This document shows positions 26,461 to 32,508 of a DNA stretch of 43,293 nucleotides, piece by piece. Made by a program: the position numbers and the translations under genes. The DNA is from Hymenobacter sp. (lineage in GTDB: Bacteria; Bacteroidota; Bacteroidia; Cytophagales; Hymenobacteraceae), in NCBI GenBank assembly GCA_025353745.1, contig JANXOE010000215.1:1-43293 (forward strand), in the 5' to 3' direction. The stretch's first letter is position 1. Each line of letters starts with the position of its first letter. The notes beneath the pieces are model-generated. The model was not told the DNA's origin and did no database searches. It saw nothing but the letters and a program-made list of their open reading frames with translations.

Positions 26461-27807
26461 ATGTTCCAACAAACCACCACCGCCGGCCTTTTGGCCAGCC
26501 GCGGCCCGGCCCCGGCCGGCGCCCCCGACGCGTCGCGTCGCCAATTCATCAACCACGCCGGGCGCGGCCTGCTGGCCGTGGGCGTGGCCGGGGCCCTGCC
26601 CCTGGCCGCCGAGGCCGCGGCGGCCGGCCAAGCAGCCCCGCCGCCCCCGGGCCCGCTCGCCGTCAAGCTGCCGCCGCTCGAAGCGCCCACCGACCCCAAA
26701 GGCGCCGACCCGCTCAACCCCGACGCGCCCGCGCGCCGGGTGGGCTTCGCCGTGGTGGGACTGGGCCACCTCACCCTCAACGAGATACTGCCCGCCTTTG
26801 GGCAGTGCAAGCACGCCCGGGCCGTGGCCCTGGTGAGCGGCGACGCCGGGAAAATGGCCAAGGTGGCGCAGCAGTACGGCATCAAGCCCGCGAGCTGCTA
26901 CTCGTACCAGACCTACGACCAGCTCAAGGACAACCCCGAGGTGGAAGCCATTTACATTGTGCTACCCAATTCGATGCACCACGAGTTTACTTTGCGCGGG
27001 GCCCGGGCCGGCAAGCACATCCTCTGCGAAAAGCCGATGGCCAACTCGGTGCAGGAGTGCGAGGAGATGATTGCCGCCTGCCAAAAAGCCGGCAAACAGC
27101 TGATGATTGCTTACCGCATCCAGTACGAGCCGCTCAACCGCATGGCGCAGAAGCTGGTGCGCGACAAAGCCTACGGCCCCACCAAGCTCATCCAGATGAT
27201 GAACTGCCAAAACCAGGCCCACGACCGGCAGTGGCGCCACCAAAAAGCCCTGGCCGGCGGCGGCTCGCTGCCCGACGTGGGCCTGTACTGCCTCAACACC
27301 AGCCGCTTCCTGCTCGGCGAGGAGCCCATTGAAGTAACGGCCCAGATTTACAGTACGCCCGGCGACGACCGCTTCAAGGAAGTAGAAGAGAACGTGAGCT
27401 TTACGCTGCGTTTCCCCAGCGGCGTACTGGCCCAGTGCATGACGGGCTACGGCTCGTTCAACCACAAGAGCTACGCCGTGCACGCCGAAACCGGCACCAT
27501 CGTCATGGACCCCGCTTTTCCCTACCGTGGCCTCAAGCAGGAGCGCGTACACGCCCCCGGCGGCAAGCAGCTCACCGAGCAGCCCAGCAACCCCGACAAA
27601 GACCAGTTTGCCCTCGAAATGGACCACATGGCCGAGTGCGTGCGCCAGAACAAAACGCCCTATACCCCCGGCGAAGAAGGCTTGCAAGACCAACGCATCA
27701 TGGAGGCCATCTACCTGTCGGCCAAAGAGAACCGCCCGGTAAAGCTACCCGCCGCAAGCAAAATGGATGCCTTCCGCGGCGCACCGCCCACGGAGGAGCC
27801 GGCGTAG
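26461..27807 (+). CDS. Gfo/Idh/MocA family oxidoreductase with Tat-type signal
   Basis: A 448-residue NAD(P)-dependent sugar or polyol oxidoreductase exported in folded form. A twin-arginine motif SRRQFI (about 22-27) precedes a hydrophobic stretch GLLAVGVAGALPLAAEAAAAG, indicating Tat export to the periplasm with bound cofactor. The Rossmann domain starts at VGFAVVGLGHLTLNEILPAF (about 93). The EKPMANS motif (about 190) carries the Lys typical of the family. DVGLYCLNTSRFLLGEEP lies in the C-terminal alpha/beta domain. Such exported members are close to glucose-fructose oxidoreductase-like proteins. The substrate is not known and no partner genes are adjacent. Confidence 0.9.
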   Translation: MFQQTTTAGLLASRGPAPAGAPDASRRQFINHAGRGLLAVGVAGALPLAAEAAAAGQAAPPPPGPLAVKLPPLEAPTDPKGADPLNPDAPARRVGFAVVGLGHLTLNEILPAFGQCKHARAVALVSGDAGKMAKVAQQYGIKPASCYSYQTYDQLKDNPEVEAIYIVLPNSMHHEFTLRGARAGKHILCEKPMANSVQECEEMIAACQKAGKQLMIAYRIQYEPLNRMAQKLVRDKAYGPTKLIQMMNCQNQAHDRQWRHQKALAGGGSLPDVGLYCLNTSRFLLGEEPIEVTAQIYSTPGDDRFKEVEENVSFTLRFPSGVLAQCMTGYGSFNHKSYAVHAETGTIVMDPAFPYRGLKQERVHAPGGKQLTEQPSNPDKDQFALEMDHMAECVRQNKTPYTPGEEGLQDQRIMEAIYLSAKENRPVKLPAASKMDAFRGAPPTEEPA

Positions 27808-27856: not shown

Positions 27857-27942
27857 AAACGAAAGAAATTTTTAAAAAATCTCTTTCTTAATTTGGTTTT
27901 CCCGCCAACCCGGCGCAACTTGCCTTGGCAAACCCGCTCCTC

Positions 27943-27996
27943 ATGCTCCGCACCGGCTTCTTTTTTGGTTTTTATTATTTTTACGCCACCGCGTAG
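27943..27996 (+). CDS. Leader peptide 1 of the pheA attenuator (Phe/Tyr-rich, 17 aa)
   Basis: This short reading frame encodes MLRTGFFFGFYYFYATA. Eight of 17 residues are Phe (5) or Tyr (3), concentrated in codons 27958-27984. It is not a functional protein but a sensor: a ribosome short of charged tRNA-Phe or tRNA-Tyr would stall in the run. GAACGAGC (27996-28003) starts at the last base of the stop codon and can pair with GCTCGTTC (28028-28035), which occupies the loop of the following terminator. A ribosome reaching the stop would cover GAACGAGC, and a stalled one would leave it free. There is no Shine-Dalgarno sequence, which is normal for the phylum. It lies 245 bases upstream of the prephenate dehydratase start. 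Confidence 0.8.
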   Translation: MLRTGFFFGFYYFYATA

Positions 27997-28035
27997 AACG
28001 AGCCCCCGTGTAGCCCCTGCTAGCGCCGCTCGTTC
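27996..28035 (+). promoter_or_regulatory. Candidate antiterminator stem of attenuator 1
   Basis: GAACGAGC (27996-28003) pairs perfectly, 8 bp, with GCTCGTTC (28028-28035). The right arm lies in the loop of terminator 1 and shares 28029-28031 with that terminator's possible upper stem, so the two folds compete. By eye I cannot exclude that both form as a pseudoknot. Confidence 0.55.
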
Positions 28036-28053
28036 TTCGGGAGGCGCTTTTTT
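28022..28053 (+). terminator. Attenuator terminator 1
   Basis: AGCGCC (28022-28027) pairs with GGCGCT (28043-28048), with a possible upper extension C29-G41, T30-G40, C31-G39. It is followed by a run of T through 28053. It ends one base before the start codon of leader peptide 2 (28055). Confidence 0.7.
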
Positions 28054-28054
28054 A

Positions 28055-28162
28055 ATGCCGTTTTTTTCGCTTGTGATGCTTTTGGCCCCCGCTTTTTATT
28101 ATTTCGGCTACCGCTACTGCTTCTTTTTTGAGAAGAGCCGGGCCTGCCGTTGCGGATGCTAA
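28055..28162 (+). CDS. Leader peptide 2 of the pheA attenuator (Phe/Tyr-rich, 35 aa)
   Basis: A second short frame, MPFFSLVMLLAPAF then YYFGYRYCFFF, ending in a basic, Cys-rich tail (EKSRACRCGC). Eleven of 35 residues are Phe (7) or Tyr (4), most of them in codons 28094-28129. ATG 28076 is an alternative start. The tail codons for Arg-Ala overlap CCGGGCCT (28138-28145), which can pair with the 5' arm of terminator 2. A ribosome held at the Phe/Tyr codons would leave that segment exposed. It shares the 12-mer TTTTTATTATTT and the 10-mer TTCTTTTTTG with leader 1, in the opposite order. It ends 78 bases before the prephenate dehydratase start. Confidence 0.75.
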   Translation: MPFFSLVMLLAPAFYYFGYRYCFFFEKSRACRCGC

Positions 28163-28197
28163 CCTGAAAAGCACCCCCACCAACGCCAAGGCCCCGG
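28138..28197 (+). promoter_or_regulatory. Candidate antiterminator stem of attenuator 2
   Basis: CCGGGCCT (28138-28145), inside the last codons of leader 2, pairs with AGGCCCCGG (28189-28197) with one bulged C. The right arm is the 5' strand of terminator 2, so this pairing and the terminator cannot coexist. Confidence 0.55.
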
Positions 28198-28216
28198 ACC
28201 CCCGGAGGCCTTTTTT
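28188..28216 (+). terminator. Attenuator terminator 2
   Basis: AAGGCC+CCGG (28188-28197) pairs with CCGG+A+GGCCTT (28202-28212), loop ACCC, then T's through 28216. This is a strong intrinsic terminator placed 24 bases before the prephenate dehydratase start codon, where it can only act on transcription of that gene. Confidence 0.8.
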
Positions 28217-28240: not shown

Positions 28241-29122
28241 ATGCCCGCGCACGTTGCCATCCAAGGTTTTCAAGGCAGTTTCCACGAAGTCGCCGCCCGG
28301 CAATATTTCGGGGCGGCGCCGGCGCTGAATTTCTGCGCCACCTTCGGCGAGGTGGTGGCCCAGGTGGCTGATGGCCGCGCCGACGCCGCCCTCATGGCCA
28401 TGGAAAACTCGCTGGCCGGCAGCATCCTGCCCAATTACCTGCTGCTGGAGCGGGCGGCCCTCGTCGTCACCGGCGAGGTGTACTTGCCCATCCATCAGCA
28501 CCTGCTGGCGCTGCCCGGCACCGCGTTGGCCGACGTGCGTGCCGTGCACTCGCACCCGATGGCCCTGCGCCAGTGCGGCGATTTCCTGGCCCGCCACCCG
28601 CACTGGCTGCTCGTCGAAACCGAGGACACCGGCCTGAGCGCCCAACTGCTGGCAGAGCACCGCCCGCCGGGCGTGGCCGTGGTGGCTGGGGCCCAGGCGG
28701 CCGCTGCTTTTGGGTTGCAGCGGCTGGCCTCCGCCATCCACGACGACCCGCACAACTACACGCGCTTCCTGGTGCTGGAGCGGGCCCCGGAGGCCCGGCC
28801 CGGGGCCCGGCCCGACAAGGCGTCGCTGTACTTCTACACGTCGCACGCGCCGGGCTGCCTGGCCCAGGTGCTCATGCTGGTGGCCGCCTACGGCCTCAAC
28901 CTGAGCAAGCTGCAGTCGTGCCCGCGCCCCGGCCGGCCCTGGCACTACGGTTTCCACGCCGACGTGGAATTCGACGATCCGGCCCAGCTCGAAGCGCTGC
29001 TGCGCGAGCTGCCCGCCGTGACGGAAGAGCTTCGGGTGCTGGGAATTTATCGGCGGGGCGACATGGCCCTGGCCATGCAAAAATCGGCTGTCATTCCGAG
29101 CGCAGCGAGGAATCTGGGTTGA
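28241..29122 (+). CDS. pheA: Prephenate dehydratase
   Basis: A 293-residue monofunctional prephenate dehydratase that converts prephenate to phenylpyruvate for Phe synthesis. The catalytic PDT domain spans about 1-185: AIQGFQGSFHEVAARQYFG, MAMENSLAGSILPNYLLL, and NYTRFLVLER with the essential Thr-Arg-Phe. An ACT domain follows (about 200-275, KASLYFYTSHAPGCLAQVL). Its effector motif is LQSCPRPGRPW where Proteobacteria have ESRP, so feedback by Phe may differ; I recall similar QSLP forms in Bacteroidota. The last ten residues (284-293) and the stop come from a palindromic repeat that has captured the 3' end. It is the first gene behind the tandem attenuator. Confidence 0.93.
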   Translation: MPAHVAIQGFQGSFHEVAARQYFGAAPALNFCATFGEVVAQVADGRADAALMAMENSLAGSILPNYLLLERAALVVTGEVYLPIHQHLLALPGTALADVRAVHSHPMALRQCGDFLARHPHWLLVETEDTGLSAQLLAEHRPPGVAVVAGAQAAAAFGLQRLASAIHDDPHNYTRFLVLERAPEARPGARPDKASLYFYTSHAPGCLAQVLMLVAAYGLNLSKLQSCPRPGRPWHYGFHADVEFDDPAQLEALLRELPAVTEELRVLGIYRRGDMALAMQKSAVIPSAARNLG

Positions 29123-29188
29123 CGATTATCCCAGATTCCTCGCTGCGCTCGGAATGACAAGCCCGGGTTTATGACAAGGCCGATTTTT
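29079..29188. repeat. Nested palindromic repeat and terminator at the pheA 3' end
   Basis: A perfect 29-bp inverted repeat: the left arm (29090-29118) starts GTCATTCCGAGCGCAGCGAG, the right arm is 29130-29158, and the loop is 11 bases. It is nested in an outer 10-bp pair AAAAATCGGC (29079-29088) / GCCGATTTTT (29179-29188). ATGACAA is duplicated at 29154-29160 and 29171-29177. The CATTCCGAGCGCAGCGAGGAATC core is a kind of dispersed palindrome known from many bacterial genomes. It supplies the stop codon of pheA, and the outer stem with T5 looks like the original terminator. Confidence 0.85.
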
Positions 29189-29217: not shown

Positions 29218-30429
29218 ATGAACGTCTCCCCCGCCAGCCGCCTGGCCCACACCGGCGAATACTACTTCTCGCGGAAGCTGCGCGAGCTGGCGGCCCTCAA
29301 CGCGGCGGGGGCCGACATCATCAGCCTGGGCATCGGCAGCCCCGATTTGCCGCCCCACCCGAGCGTGACGGCGGCCCTGGCGGCCGCGGCGGCGCGGCCC
29401 GGCGCCCACGGCTACCAGAGCTACCAGGGCACGCCGGCGCTGCGCGGGGCCCTGGCCGGTTTTTACCAGCGCCGCTACGGCGTGGCCCTGGACCCGGCCA
29501 CGGAAATCCTGCCGCTGCTGGGCTCGAAAGAGGGCCTGATGCACATTGGAATGACGTTTTTGGAGGCCGGCGACGCGGTGCTCATCCCCAACCCCGGCTA
29601 CCCGACTTACCGCGCGGTGGCCGAAATCTGCGGGGCCGAGGTGCGCGAGTACGCCCTCACCGCGGCCACCGGCTGGCTGCCCGACCTGGGGGCCCTCGCC
29701 CGCACCGACCTGTCGAACGTGAAAATGATGCTGGTGAACTACCCGCACATGCCCACCGGCACGGCCGCCGACCGGCCGTTTCTGGCGCGGCTGGTGGAAT
29801 TTGCCACGGCCCACGACATTCTGCTGGTCCACGACAACCCGTACGGCTTCATCCTCAACGAGACGCCGCCGACCAGCCTCTTGTCGGTGCCCGGCGCCCG
29901 CGCCGTGGCCCTGGAGCTGAACTCGCTCAGCAAGTCGCACAACATGGCCGGCTGGCGCGTGGGGGCCCTGGTGGGCCGGGCCGATTTGCTGGCCGCCGTG
30001 CTCCGCTTCAAAAGCAACATGGACTCGGGCATGTTCCTGCCCGTGCAGCAGGCCGCCGTGGCCGCCCTGGCGCTCGGCGACGACTGGTTTGAGGACCTGA
30101 ACGCCACGTACCGCGGCCGCCGCGCCTTGGTCATCGAGCTGCTGCGGGCCCTGGGCTGCGCGCCGGCCCCCGGCCAGGTGGGCCTGTTCATTTGGGCCCC
30201 GGTGCCGGCCGCCTTCGCCGACGGCTACGCCCTGAGCGACGCCGTGCTGGCCGAAGCCCGGGTGTTTCTGACGCCCGGCGGCATCTTCGGCAGCAACGGC
30301 CAGGGCTACGTCCGGGCCAGCCTGTGCCAGCCGGAAAGCGTGCTGCGCGAAGCGCTGGCCCGGGTGAAGGCAATGCATCCGCTGGAAATCGCAGCAACCG
30401 GCACCACCTGGCAAGCCCCCAAGTTATGA
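29218..30429 (+). CDS. Class I/II PLP aminotransferase (aromatic pathway)
   Basis: A 403-residue fold-type I aminotransferase, most likely making Phe and Tyr from phenylpyruvate and hydroxyphenylpyruvate, judged by its place between pheA and tyrA. Motifs: IISLGIGSPDLPPHP, GYQSYQGTPALRGALAGFY, the PLP-phosphate loop LLGSKEGLMHI, NPGYPTY, NYPHMPTG (the conserved Asn), HDNPYGFI (the Asp that binds the pyridine nitrogen), and the Schiff-base Lys in SLSKSHNMAGWRVG. Family members also include LL-diaminopimelate and aspartate aminotransferases, so substrate is inferred from context. Its stop overlaps the tyrA start (ATGA), so the two are translationally coupled. Confidence 0.9.
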   Translation: MNVSPASRLAHTGEYYFSRKLRELAALNAAGADIISLGIGSPDLPPHPSVTAALAAAAARPGAHGYQSYQGTPALRGALAGFYQRRYGVALDPATEILPLLGSKEGLMHIGMTFLEAGDAVLIPNPGYPTYRAVAEICGAEVREYALTAATGWLPDLGALARTDLSNVKMMLVNYPHMPTGTAADRPFLARLVEFATAHDILLVHDNPYGFILNETPPTSLLSVPGARAVALELNSLSKSHNMAGWRVGALVGRADLLAAVLRFKSNMDSGMFLPVQQAAVAALALGDDWFEDLNATYRGRRALVIELLRALGCAPAPGQVGLFIWAPVPAAFADGYALSDAVLAEARVFLTPGGIFGSNGQGYVRASLCQPESVLREALARVKAMHPLEIAATGTTWQAPKL

Positions 30430-31271
30430 CCGTCACCATCATCGGCCTCGGACTCATCGGCGGCTCGCTGGCCCTCAGCCTGCGCCAGCACGGGCTGGCC
30501 GCGCACCTCATCGGCGTGGAGGAGGGCCCCGACCACGCCCACCGGGCCCTGGCGCTGGGCCTGGTCGACGAAATCGCCGCCGACCTGCCCGCCGCCGTGC
30601 GCCGCGCCGACTTCGTGGTGGTGGCCGTGCCGATGGACGCCATGCTGGCCGTGCTCCCGCGCGTGCTCGACGCCACCGGCCCCCGCCAAACCGTGATCGA
30701 CGTGGGCTCGACCAAAGCGGCGCTGCTGGCGGCCGTGGCCGGGCACCCGCGCCGGGGCCGCTTCGTGGCCACCCACCCCATGGCCGGCACCGAAAATTCG
30801 GGGCCCGACGCGGCCGTGCCGGGCCTCTACGAAGGCAAAACCGTGGTGCTCTGCGACGTGGCGCACAGCGACCCCGACGCCGTGCAGCTGGTGGAAAAAA
30901 TTTACCAGGCCCTGCCCATGCGGCTGCTCTACCTCGACGCGGCGGCCCACGACTTGCACGCGGCCTACGTGTCGCACATCTCGCACATCACGTCTTTTGC
31001 CCTGGCCCTCACGGTGTTGGAGAAAGAAAAGGAGGAGCAGCGCATTTTCGACCTGGCCGGCGGCGGCTTTGCCTCGACGGTGCGGCTGGCCAAAAGCTCG
31101 TCGGCCATGTGGGTGCCCATCTTCCGCCAAAACCGGCTGAACGTGCTGGATGTGCTCGACGAGCACCTGCACCAGCTCCGGCACCTGCGCGAGCTGCTGG
31201 CGCGCGAAGACTACGCCGGGCTCGCGGAGCAGATTCACCAGGCCAACCACATCCGCAAGATTATTCCGTAG
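30426..31271 (+). CDS. tyrA: Prephenate dehydrogenase
   Basis: A 281-residue NAD(P)-dependent oxidative decarboxylase turning prephenate into 4-hydroxyphenylpyruvate for Tyr synthesis. ATG 30426 overlaps the aminotransferase stop by four bases and gives the expected N-terminal Rossmann motif VTIIGLGLIGGSLALSL. Other motifs: VVVAVPMDAM, DVGSTKAALL, THPMAGTENSGPDAA with the catalytic-type His, and HDLHAAYVSHISHITSFAL. The all-alpha dimerisation domain ends at HIRKIIP. It has no ACT domain, so Tyr feedback on this enzyme itself is not obvious. Confidence 0.93.
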   Translation: MTVTIIGLGLIGGSLALSLRQHGLAAHLIGVEEGPDHAHRALALGLVDEIAADLPAAVRRADFVVVAVPMDAMLAVLPRVLDATGPRQTVIDVGSTKAALLAAVAGHPRRGRFVATHPMAGTENSGPDAAVPGLYEGKTVVLCDVAHSDPDAVQLVEKIYQALPMRLLYLDAAAHDLHAAYVSHISHITSFALALTVLEKEKEEQRIFDLAGGGFASTVRLAKSSSAMWVPIFRQNRLNVLDVLDEHLHQLRHLRELLAREDYAGLAEQIHQANHIRKIIP

Positions 31272-31437: not shown

Positions 31438-32508
31438 ATGTTCCGCGACCTTTTCAACCGCCAACCCAACGACAAGCCGTTCCTCATCTCGGGGCCCTGC
31501 TCGGCCGAAACCGAAGACCAGGTGCTCGAAACCTGCCAGCGCCTGGCCGCCACCGGCAAGGTGCAGGCCCTGCGCGCCGGCATCTGGAAGCCCCGCACCA
31601 AGCCCGGCGGCTTCGAGGGCGTGGGCGCCAAGGGCCTGCCCTGGCTGAAAAAAGCCGGCGAGCTGACCGGCCTGCCCGTGGCCGTGGAGGTGGCCACCGC
31701 CAAGCACGTGGAAGACTGCCTGGCCTTCGGCGTGGACCTGCTGTGGGTGGGCGCGCGCACCACGGGCAACCCGTTTTCGGTGCAGGAAATTGCCAACGCC
31801 CTGCGCGGCGTGGCGGTGCCGGTGCTGGTGAAAAACCCGATTCACCCCGAACTGGAGCTGTGGGCGGGGGCCGTCGAGCGCCTGCAAAAGGCCGGGCTGA
31901 AGCAGGTGGGGCTGATCCACCGGGGCTTTTCAAGCTACGGCAACCCCGATTTCCGCAACGCGCCGATGTGGCACCTGCCCATCGAAATGAAGCGCCGGAT
32001 GCCCGAGCTGCCCATCCTCAACGACCCGAGCCACATTTGCGGGCGGCGCGACACGCTGTTTGCCGTGGCCCAGCAGGCCCTGGACCTGGACTTCGACGGG
32101 ACGATGATCGAGAGCCACCGCGACCCCGACAACGCCTGGAGCGACGCCAAGCAGCAAATCACGCCCGAAGTGCTCGGCCAGCTCATCCACGACCTGGTGT
32201 GGCGCCACGAAACCACCGACAAAGCAGAATTTTTGACGGCCCTGGCCGGCCTGCGCGAGCAAATCAATAACCTCGACGCCGAGGTGCTGCTGCTGCTGGG
32301 CCGCCGCATGGCCGTGGCCGAAAAAATCGGGCAGTACAAGAAGGAAAACGACATCACCATCCTCCAAACCGGCCGCCTGACCGAAATTCTGGAGCGCAGC
32401 AAGCGCCAGGGGGCCCAGGTGGGCCTCACCGAAGCCTTCGTGGAGCGGTACATGGAAGCCGTTCACCTGGAGTCGGTGCTGCGCCAGGAGCGGGTGATGA
32501 ACGGGTAG
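31438..32508 (+). CDS. Bifunctional 3-deoxy-7-phosphoheptulonate synthase / chorismate mutase
   Basis: A 356-residue fusion that catalyses the first step of the shikimate pathway (PEP + erythrose-4-phosphate to DAHP) and the chorismate-to-prephenate branch step. The DAHP synthase domain (about 1-260, type I-beta/KDSA-like) has FLISGPCSAETEDQ, IWKPRTKPGGFEGVG, GARTTGNPFSVQEIA, GLIHRGFSSYG and MIESHRDPDNAWSDAKQQ. The chorismate mutase type II domain (about 265-350) has LREQINNLDAEVLLLLGRRMAVAEKIGQYKK, with the spaced Arg/Arg/Lys of the active site. It is the last gene of the aromatic group, after a 166-base gap with two hairpins. The prephenate made here feeds both pheA and tyrA. Confidence 0.94.
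   Translation: MFRDLFNRQPNDKPFLISGPCSAETEDQVLETCQRLAATGKVQALRAGIWKPRTKPGGFEGVGAKGLPWLKKAGELTGLPVAVEVATAKHVEDCLAFGVDLLWVGARTTGNPFSVQEIANALRGVAVPVLVKNPIHPELELWAGAVERLQKAGLKQVGLIHRGFSSYGNPDFRNAPMWHLPIEMKRRMPELPILNDPSHICGRRDTLFAVAQQALDLDFDGTMIESHRDPDNAWSDAKQQITPEVLGQLIHDLVWRHETTDKAEFLTALAGLREQINNLDAEVLLLLGRRMAVAEKIGQYKKENDITILQTGRLTEILERSKRQGAQVGLTEAFVERYMEAVHLESVLRQERVMNG

What the first reader, a model, noticed from the sequence alone, without database searches (positions are those of the whole stretch)
27943..28216. Tandem Phe/Tyr leader-peptide attenuators in front of pheA
Two short frames, MLRTGFFFGFYYFYATA (8 of 17 residues Phe/Tyr) and a 35-residue peptide with 11 Phe/Tyr, lie one after the other upstream of prephenate dehydratase. 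Each is followed by a hairpin plus T-run: stems at 28022-28048 and 28188-28212. Each has an alternative pairing that could prevent that hairpin: 27996-28003 with 28028-28035, and 28138-28145 with 28189-28197. Stalling at Phe/Tyr codons would free the upstream antiterminator arms. Free passage would cover them and allow termination. Leader-peptide attenuation is classical for pheA/trp/his in Proteobacteria. Two complete attenuators in series, sensing both Phe and Tyr, in a Cytophagales-like genome without Shine-Dalgarno initiation is something I do not know to be described.
Basis: partly seen in the sequence, partly recalled or inferred. Interest (0 to 1): 0.93.

Follow-up and report, generated by a model that had tools for sequence, protein, structure and literature searches.

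The report
Double Phe/Tyr attenuator before pheA
Before the phenylalanine/tyrosine-making operon of a Hymenobacter, and of most relatives examined in its genus, lie two short Phe/Tyr-rich reading frames one after the other, each followed by a terminator-like hairpin with a predicted competing fold; together they would likely act as two switches in series that let the operon be read only when these amino acids run short.

Summary
Both frames, both hairpin/T-runs and both alternative pairings are at the stated places. A Phe/Tyr-rich short frame precedes pheA in 107 of 107 loci of the genus (Hymenobacter); 82 have two, 25 have one. The same criteria hit 1 of 107 antisense regions and 3 of 1070 shuffles. 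Module 1's hairpins covary. Native antiterminator arms pair better than arms swapped between sequence clusters (0 of 5000 permutations reach the native sum, either module). A Bacteroidota-type promoter motif stands before frame 1 in 89 of 107 loci, before frame 2 in 1 of 82, so both modules probably lie on one RNA. Best reading: two ribosome-mediated transcription attenuators in series, a doubled form of a single Phe/Tyr attenuator found before pheA in many, not all, other Bacteroidota examined. The single form was predicted before (PMC1173090; hinted in PMC9723704). Ten library searches showed no doubled amino-acid attenuator, but the library lacks most subscription journals. Doubling is seen in three lineages. 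No RNA, ribosome or starvation data exist; function is inferred. New variant of a known kind.

The parts
27892..27923 (+). promoter-like site TTTG-N20-CAACTTG (Bacteroidota type; consensus recalled)
   Evidence: score 8 of 9 in the window; 89 of 107 loci score 8 or 9, mostly 26 to 34 nt before ATG 1; control 9 of 535; before frame 2 1 of 82
27943..27996 (+). leader peptide 1, MLRTGFFFGFYYFYATA, stop TAG
   Evidence: stop TAG in 79 of 79 module-1 leaders counted
27979..27998 (+). hairpin A of module 1 (27979-27986 with 27991-27998), built from the last Phe/Tyr codons and the stop codon
27995..28003 (+). antiterminator arm 2 of module 1
   Evidence: swap test 0 of 5000
28028..28036 (+). antiterminator arm 3 of module 1, inside terminator 1
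28022..28053 (+). terminator 1: hairpin 28022-28048 plus T-run 28048-28053
28055..28162 (+). leader peptide 2 (35 aa from 28055, or 28 aa from 28076), stop TAA
28120..28135 (+). hairpin of module 2 (CUUCUU..GAGAAG), built from Phe codons and the following Glu-Lys codons
28138..28152 (+). antiterminator arm 2 of module 2 (28138-28145 and 28148-28152)
   Evidence: swap test 0 of 5000
28181..28197 (+). antiterminator arm 3 of module 2 (28181-28185 and 28189-28197)
28188..28216 (+). terminator 2: hairpin 28188-28212 plus T-run 28211-28216
28241..29122 (+). pheA, prephenate dehydratase (PF00800)
   Evidence: E 9e-51
29218..30429 (+). aminotransferase class I/II (PF00155)
30411..31271 (+). tyrA, prephenate dehydrogenase (PF02153, PF20463)
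   Evidence: start codon not settled
31438..32508 (+). DAHP synthase fused to chorismate mutase (PF00793, PF01817)

Best explanation
The leader before pheA holds two modules in series, each a Phe/Tyr-rich short frame, a hairpin with a T-run and a predicted competing antiterminator fold, which likely act as two ribosome-mediated transcription attenuators that RNA polymerase would have to pass one after the other. Inferred working: when charged tRNA-Phe or tRNA-Tyr is short, the ribosome would stall in the Phe/Tyr run, break hairpin A, leave arm 2 free to pair with arm 3, and so prevent the terminator. When both are plentiful it would run on to the stop, cover arm 2, and the terminator would form. 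RNA that ends at terminator 1 does not contain frame 2, so the second test would be made only on RNA that passed the first. The two terminations would therefore multiply: low basal expression, and full read-through only if both leaders stall. Shown here: anatomy, conservation, covariation, one promoter motif, predicted folds. Inferred: translation of both frames, termination at both T-runs, the response to starvation.
For: 107 of 107 genus loci have a Phe/Tyr-rich frame and 82 have two. The detector finds both terminators in 78 of 82; in the other 4 (L051, L053, L056, L058) hairpins are visible by eye, behind a longer called frame or with a T-run broken by one C. Controls 1 of 107 antisense, 0 of 107 further upstream, 3 of 1070 shuffles. 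Module 1 hairpin A and terminator, 76 distinct of 79 sequences: 96.1% of 1283 cells paired, 55 cells changed on both sides against 17.1 in shuffles (0 of 500) and at most 8 when slid. Antiterminator arms change together: GAACGAGC/GCTCGTTC, GTCGAG/CTCGAC, GTCGGG/CCCGAC, GAGGC/GCCTC, and in 18 of 25 single-leader loci ACGAGT/ACTCGT. Native against swapped duplexes: -15.8 against -11.1 kcal/mol over 13 clusters (module 1), -19.1 against -17.1 over 23 clusters (module 2), 0 of 5000 permutations each; hairpin A 9 of 5000. Stall scan on the window: module 1 P(terminator) 0.00-0.04 with the A site on any codon up to the last Phe, 0.48 on the last Tyr, 0.96 beyond; module 2 falls to 0.36 inside the run and is 0.93-0.96 past it. 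Over all modules the antiterminator falls below half its best value 1-4 codons after the run in 79 of 79 module-1 leaders and 1-3 codons after it in 25 of 25 single ones. One promoter motif. The operon makes both Phe and Tyr. The same genome has a Trp-rich frame (WWW) before a probable trpE and a His-rich frame before hisG.
Against: No transcript, ribosome-profiling or expression data. Equilibrium folds of 9 of 82 tandem and 3 of 25 single species: P(terminator) drops below 0.5 on some Phe/Tyr codon in 11 of 18 tandem modules and 2 of 3 single ones; in the other 7 and 1 the terminator wins at every codon, so the scheme needs co-transcriptional folding. In the window's module 2 it is also 0.72-0.92 on the first four Phe/Tyr codons and 0.90 on the last. 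In module 2 the predicted switch comes within 2 codons of the run in 35 of 81, 4-8 later in 7 and 9-12 later in 39. With the stop codon in the A site some antiterminator pairs remain predicted (mean 2.3 and 2.4). Consensus folding of the module-2 alignment recovers only the small hairpin, so module 2's long pairings rest on the swap test and single folds. Not all arms fit: the best stem in L004 is cut by a mismatch and two loci give a stem outside the expected arms. In one search the number of further pair types is not above shuffles (142 of 500 reach it). The swap test does not fully correct for shared ancestry. Whether Bacteroidota couple translation to transcription tightly enough is not known to me.
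Confidence: 0.85

Rival explanations
1. Only one module is a working attenuator (most likely module 1); the other is a relic or serves another end, such as a back-up terminator or re-initiation of ribosomes.
For: Module 2's stall geometry is less clean, its alignment fold is weak, and 25 of 107 loci have a single leader, whose arms in 18 of 25 resemble those of module 1.
Against: Module 2 keeps its Phe/Tyr run, hairpin, arms and terminator over 23 sequence clusters, with native arms pairing better than swapped ones, 0 of 5000. Doubling also occurs in part of genus g5 and in a genus outside the order.
Confidence: 0.12
2. The two modules are driven by separate promoters and so are not in series: an upstream promoter feeds module 1 and an internal one feeds module 2.
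For: Some space lies between the modules (median 25 nt from T-run 1 to ATG 2), and 1 of 82 loci has a promoter-like score of 8 before frame 2.
Against: 89 of 107 loci score 8 or 9 before frame 1, 1 of 82 scores 8 before frame 2, control 9 of 535. A promoter of a type I did not scan for is not excluded.
Confidence: 0.04
3. The hairpins are ordinary terminators of the upstream gene and the Phe/Tyr frames are chance or encode functional small peptides.
For: The upstream gene ends at 27807 on the same strand and hairpins follow.
Against: The frames lie before the hairpins, keep Phe/Tyr content, and occur before pheA in many other genera; antiterminator arms covary.
Confidence: 0.02
4. A T-box, riboswitch or protein-binding leader senses Phe or Tyr directly.
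For: Such leaders regulate aromatic genes in other phyla (recalled).
Against: No Rfam family matches this stretch at gathering score, and only two far-below-cutoff matches on the other strand appear at E up to 5; the conserved feature is Phe/Tyr codons in frame.
Confidence: 0.01

Closest known systems
Leader-peptide (ribosome-mediated) transcription attenuators of amino-acid operons: E. coli/Salmonella trp, his, pheA (PMC1183508, one passage seen; mechanism otherwise recalled)
   Same: Short frame rich in codons of the operon's product, alternative hairpins, intrinsic terminator before the first gene.
   Different: Two complete units in one leader; both Phe and Tyr codons; Shine-Dalgarno-like motif before only 3 of 107 first and 0 of 82 second frames; no match to any Rfam leader family.
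Putative attenuator before pheA>hisHb>aroA-aroQ>tyrA in Bacteroides thetaiotaomicron (PMC1173090, passages incl. part of Table 7)
   Same: Same kinds of genes, same phylum, attenuator predicted upstream of pheA.
   Different: Taken there from a website of predicted attenuators; no leader peptide, codon run or doubling in the passages seen. The same paper mentions two attenuator units in a Streptococcus pneumoniae aromatic supraoperon.
5' element upstream of pheA in Flavobacteriaceae and clues for leader-peptide attenuation (PMC9723704, passages seen)
   Same: Phylum, gene, and leader-peptide attenuation proposed for amino-acid operons from transcriptome data.
   Different: No doubling in the passages seen; supplementary tables not available to me.
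Tandem attenuators of Salmonella mgtCBR (PMC3641672, abstract and one section read)
   Same: Two short frames in one leader controlling one operon; [quoted passage not shown]
   Different: Signals there are ATP and proline, the operon is not an amino-acid operon, and the stem-loops do not resemble intrinsic terminators; here both modules carry Phe/Tyr codons and hairpin/T-run terminators.
Tandem terminators of the rimP leader in some Gammaproteobacteria (PMC2965389, passages seen), tandem T-boxes (search listing only) and tandem metE riboswitches (as told in PMC3641672)
   Same: Doubled terminator or sensing units in series in one leader.
   Different: Not leader peptides with codons of the operon's product.

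Membership tests
Leader-peptide transcription attenuator of an amino-acid operon | Short frame rich in codons for the operon's end product(s) | tested here: met
   8 of 17 and 11 of 35 Phe/Tyr; 107 of 107 loci; operon makes Phe and Tyr
Leader-peptide transcription attenuator of an amino-acid operon | Intrinsic terminator-like hairpin between leader frame and first gene | tested here: met
   Detector: 79 of 82 module 1, 81 of 82 module 2, 25 of 25 single; the four missed ones seen by eye. Termination itself not measured.
Leader-peptide transcription attenuator of an amino-acid operon | Alternative antiterminator pairing that overlaps the terminator and covaries | tested here: met
   Swap tests 0 of 5000 for both modules; arm pairs changed on both sides; a few loci do not fit
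Leader-peptide transcription attenuator of an amino-acid operon | Protector hairpin (1:2) that includes the regulatory codons | tested here: met
   Module 1: 94.5% of cells paired, 2 of 7 pairs with double changes. Module 2: 6-pair hairpin, 2 pairs with double changes
Leader-peptide transcription attenuator of an amino-acid operon | Stalling in the run frees the antiterminator; reading past it favours the terminator | tested here: inconclusive
   Predicted folds: clean for module 1 and single leaders on growing RNA, mixed for module 2 and at equilibrium
Leader-peptide transcription attenuator of an amino-acid operon | Read-through rises when the cognate charged tRNA falls | not testable with these tools
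   Needs expression data
Tandem (two in series) attenuator | Both modules on one transcript | tested here: inconclusive
   Promoter motif before module 1 in 89 of 107, before module 2 in 1 of 82; no 5'-end data
T-box or riboswitch | Match to a known sensor family | tested here: not met
   No Rfam match in this stretch
mgtCBR-type tandem attenuator | Two leaders with different signals, no intrinsic terminators | tested here: not met
   Both leaders carry Phe and Tyr codons, both end in hairpin/T-run

The most novel reading that the evidence does not exclude
A two-input serial gate built from leader peptides: the first attenuator is weighted to Tyr (runs end mostly YYFYY or FYYFY, with the stop codon UAG pairing back onto the last Tyr codon), the second to Phe (runs end mostly YYFFF or YYFFY, pairing onto following Lys codons), so the shared Phe/Tyr operon is fully read only when both are short. 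A single mixed leader would respond to either. The doubling arose at least twice, perhaps three times, in Bacteroidota from a widespread single Phe/Tyr attenuator, and was lost again in two groups of Hymenobacter.
Probability: 0.35. Interest if true: 0.78.

Novelty: new variant of a known kind. Interest (0 to 1): 0.62.

Why it matters
Amino-acid attenuation is the textbook case of ribosome-coupled gene control, known mostly from Proteobacteria (recalled). The loci here show a Phe/Tyr version before pheA in many Bacteroidota, at frames without Shine-Dalgarno-like motifs in nearly all Hymenobacter loci, and a natural set of single and doubled forms in one genus. That makes an open question directly testable: what does a second attenuator in series buy (lower basal level, steeper response, or AND logic between two amino acids)? 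It also presupposes close coupling of ribosome and RNA polymerase in Bacteroidota, which these leaders could be used to test.

Tried and rejected
The built-in terminator and sigma-70 scans list none of the features described here. Rfam at relaxed threshold gave two matches far below cutoff on the other strand. An alignment-wide count for the antiterminators was dropped because arm 2 shifts register by one base between the two main sequence groups; I used arm swapping and best-stem listing instead. The first promoter scan used a pattern that missed the -7 box near the ATG (54 of 107 loci, control 58 of 535); the second gave 89 of 107 against 9 of 535. In one search minus-strand loci among L001-L030 were read in the wrong direction; corrected. 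The single-leader arm listing fails for 7 of 25 loci, whose stop codon moved. An RNA model of module 1 finds the pheA leader as the only strong hit in 8 of 12 genomes (E 2.5e-12 or better; 150 candidates scored per genome); weaker hits, several on both strands, were not pursued; it also finds the window's module 2 at E 0.04, and modules 1 and 2 align above mononucleotide-shuffled sequence (15.8 against -7.2): weak hints of duplication, not proof. PheA tree of 30 of 107 loci: the 16 single-leader loci fall on one side of a branch with weak support (75/56; 74% of bootstrap trees); the second single-leader group was not in the tree. Own-genome looks at homoserine dehydrogenase and acetolactate-synthase-type genes were uninformative: flank too short or no leader seen. 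Literature: 10 searches (listings of 15 of 150 and 15 of 34 papers); no listed title or abstract start showed a doubled amino-acid leader-peptide attenuator. Most subscription papers are missing, including Vitreschak et al. 2004 (FEMS Microbiol Lett 234:357; seen only as a reference), which I recall as predicting attenuators in some Bacteroidetes and could not read.

Full report
What is there. The window belongs to a genome of the genus Hymenobacter: its pheA matches titled Hymenobacter records at up to 87% identity, and the genus lies in Hymenobacteraceae, Cytophagales, Bacteroidota. The operon is pheA (28241-29122), an aminotransferase, tyrA and a DAHP synthase/chorismate mutase fusion. It thus makes both Phe and Tyr.

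Is it more than chance? I took pheA upstream regions from all 107 genomes of the genus (of 120 searched) that gave a pheA match, two of them fragmentary or weak (L105, L107). All 107 hold a short frame (8-60 aa) with at least 5 Phe/Tyr in 10 residues; the same criteria hit 1 of 107 antisense regions, 0 of 107 regions further upstream and 3 of 1070 block shuffles. 82 loci hold two such frames in tandem and 25 hold one. Spacing is tight: stop 1 to T-run 51-68 nt, T-run 1 to frame 2 14-29 nt, stop 2 to T-run 33-71 nt. My detector finds terminator 1 in 79 of 82 and terminator 2 in 81 of 82; the three missing first terminators have the hairpin but a T-run broken by a C, and the missing second one is present behind a longer called frame (seen by eye).

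RNA structure. In an alignment of 76 distinct module-1 sequences (3 of 79 were duplicates), hairpin A and the terminator pair in 96.1% of cells, with 55 cells changed on both sides (shuffles 17.1, 0 of 500 reach it; slid structures at most 8); the number of further pair types is not above shuffles (142 of 500). Hairpin A is made of the last Phe/Tyr codons and the stop codon, which is TAG in 79 of 79. The antiterminator changes letters in step between lineages: GAACGAGC with GCTCGTTC, GTCGAG with CTCGAC, GTCGGG with CCCGAC, GAGGC with GCCTC and, in 18 of 25 single-leader loci, ACGAGT with ACTCGT. A few loci do not fit (L004 has a mismatch; two have a best stem elsewhere). Swapping arms between sequence clusters weakens the duplex, from -15.8 to -11.1 kcal/mol in module 1 (13 clusters) and from -19.1 to -17.1 in module 2 (23 clusters); 0 of 5000 permutations reach the native sum in either; for hairpin A 9 of 5000 do. 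This control does not remove all effects of common descent. For module 2 the aligned consensus fold shows only the small hairpin of Phe and Lys codons.

How it would work. With a ribosome footprint imposed on the window's RNA, module 1 has P(terminator) 0.00-0.04 while the A site is on any codon up to the last Phe, 0.48 on the last Tyr, and 0.96 from the next codon on. Module 2 is at 0.72-0.92 on its first four Phe/Tyr codons, falls to 0.36-0.56 over the next stretch, is 0.90 on the last Phe and 0.93-0.96 beyond. Without a ribosome the values are 0.59 and 0.93. In nine tandem species that I chose (of 82), P(terminator) drops below 0.5 on some Phe/Tyr codon in 11 of 18 modules, and in 2 of 3 single-leader species (of 25); elsewhere the terminator wins throughout. 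On RNA cut off before the terminator's 3' arm, as it would be while being made, the antiterminator falls below half its best value 1-4 codons after the Phe/Tyr run in 79 of 79 module-1 leaders and 1-3 codons after it in 25 of 25 single leaders; in module 2 this comes within 2 codons in 35 of 81, 4-8 codons in 7 and 9-12 codons in 39. So module 1 and the single form behave like the textbook case on growing RNA, and module 2 less cleanly.

In series. A promoter motif TTTG-N19/20-TAnnTTG (Bacteroidota type; consensus recalled) scores 8 or 9 of 9 before frame 1 in 89 of 107 loci, against 9 of 535 control windows and 1 of 82 before frame 2. In the window the motif lies at 27892-27923, so a start about 12-16 nt before frame 1 is inferred. 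RNA ending at terminator 1 lacks frame 2. The two decisions should multiply. Shine-Dalgarno-like motifs stand before 3 of 107 first and 0 of 82 second frames.

Tyr and Phe weighting. Both leaders carry both amino acids, but the last three Phe/Tyr residues of the run hold on average 1.95 Tyr in module 1 and 0.77 in module 2 (79 and 81 leaders). Over 18 clusters module 1 is the Tyr-richer in 13, equal in 5 and poorer in none, while the Tyr share of the whole runs differs little (0.53 and 0.46). This may be cause or consequence of the hairpin sequences (Tyr UAC pairs with stop UAG; Phe UUC pairs with Lys AAG), so I hold it as the bold reading only. The five tandem loci of genus g5 do not show it: both runs end Phe-rich there.

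How widespread. Within the family: 3 loci examined of 4 in genus g6 are tandem; of 9 examined in g5, 5 are tandem with quite different peptides and 4 single; 8 of 8 in g2 are single; 15 of 15 in g4 are single. Of 20 loci from other families of the order, the frame detector flags 8; I accept 6 as single leaders with a hairpin seen by eye and reject two (L137, L138). Of 27 new loci among the best matches of a phylum-wide search (215 of 247 genomes matched; one, L181, is the genome of L130, and three lie in the order), 27 have a Phe/Tyr frame; 26 pass the terminator detector and L172 has a hairpin with only four T. One of the 27 (L179) is tandem, and so is the only other genome of its genus that is held (L219). 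Of 20 further phylum loci that I chose, 10 have a leader and 10 have none; nine of the ten without it have a more distant type of PheA and one (L209) a nearer type. Of 36 titled non-Hymenobacter loci, 20 have a leader with terminator, among them records titled Cyclobacteriaceae, Muribaculum and Bacteroidales, and 16 have none, some of these with little upstream sequence. So a single Phe/Tyr attenuator is widespread but not general, and doubling is seen in three lineages: Hymenobacter with g6, part of g5, and one genus outside the order. Whether the first two share an origin was not tested. In the PheA tree of 30 loci the single-leader group lies beside tandem ones in a way that fits a loss, at weak support and with a midpoint root.

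Against what is known. Single attenuators before this operon were predicted in Bacteroides (PMC1173090, passages) and hinted at in flavobacteria (PMC9723704, passages); leader-peptide-like small frames are mentioned for B. thetaiotaomicron (PMC7366714, passages). Tandem attenuators are described for Salmonella mgtCBR with other signals and without intrinsic terminators (PMC3641672, abstract and one section), and tandem terminators for the rimP leader of some Gammaproteobacteria (PMC2965389, passages). Ten searches of the held library listed no doubled amino-acid attenuator. I therefore file it as a new variant of a known kind. It works like a leader-peptide attenuator by anatomy; the defining physiological response is untested.

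Noticed in passing
window 29089-29159: A palindromic repeat overlaps the 3' end of the pheA frame and supplies its last codons; its 28-base arm occurs 53 times in the genome with up to 2 mismatches, often as inverted pairs.
   Followed up: partly
L150 (own genome): A frame MFSQLTSQAWWWPLRNSGPDSQCAR, with a hairpin seen by eye further on (the script listed none), stands before a chorismate-binding gene, probably trpE: a single Trp attenuator candidate.
   Followed up: partly
L148 (own genome, hisG): A short frame with GHGHRHHHRW stands before hisG: a His leader candidate; no T-run hairpin was found by the script.
   Followed up: partly
L179 and L219, about 360-100 nt upstream of pheA: A tandem pair of Phe/Tyr leaders with two terminators in both held genomes of a genus outside the order.
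   Followed up: partly
13 of 120 genus genomes: No pheA match was found in 13 genomes of the genus, 11 of them at least 90% complete and at most 5% contaminated; possible loss or replacement of Phe synthesis.
   Followed up: no
L182, L186, L188-L190, L195: Several leaders of other Bacteroidota also contain Trp among or beside the Phe/Tyr codons, e.g. NNWFYFFF, YFWFYYYY.
   Followed up: no
L052, L054, L055, L059, L060, L069, L107: In one single-leader group the old TAG of leader 1 is out of frame and the frame reads on through arm 2 (e.g. ...LPGSRAAVL); the effect on hairpin A is unclear.
   Followed up: no
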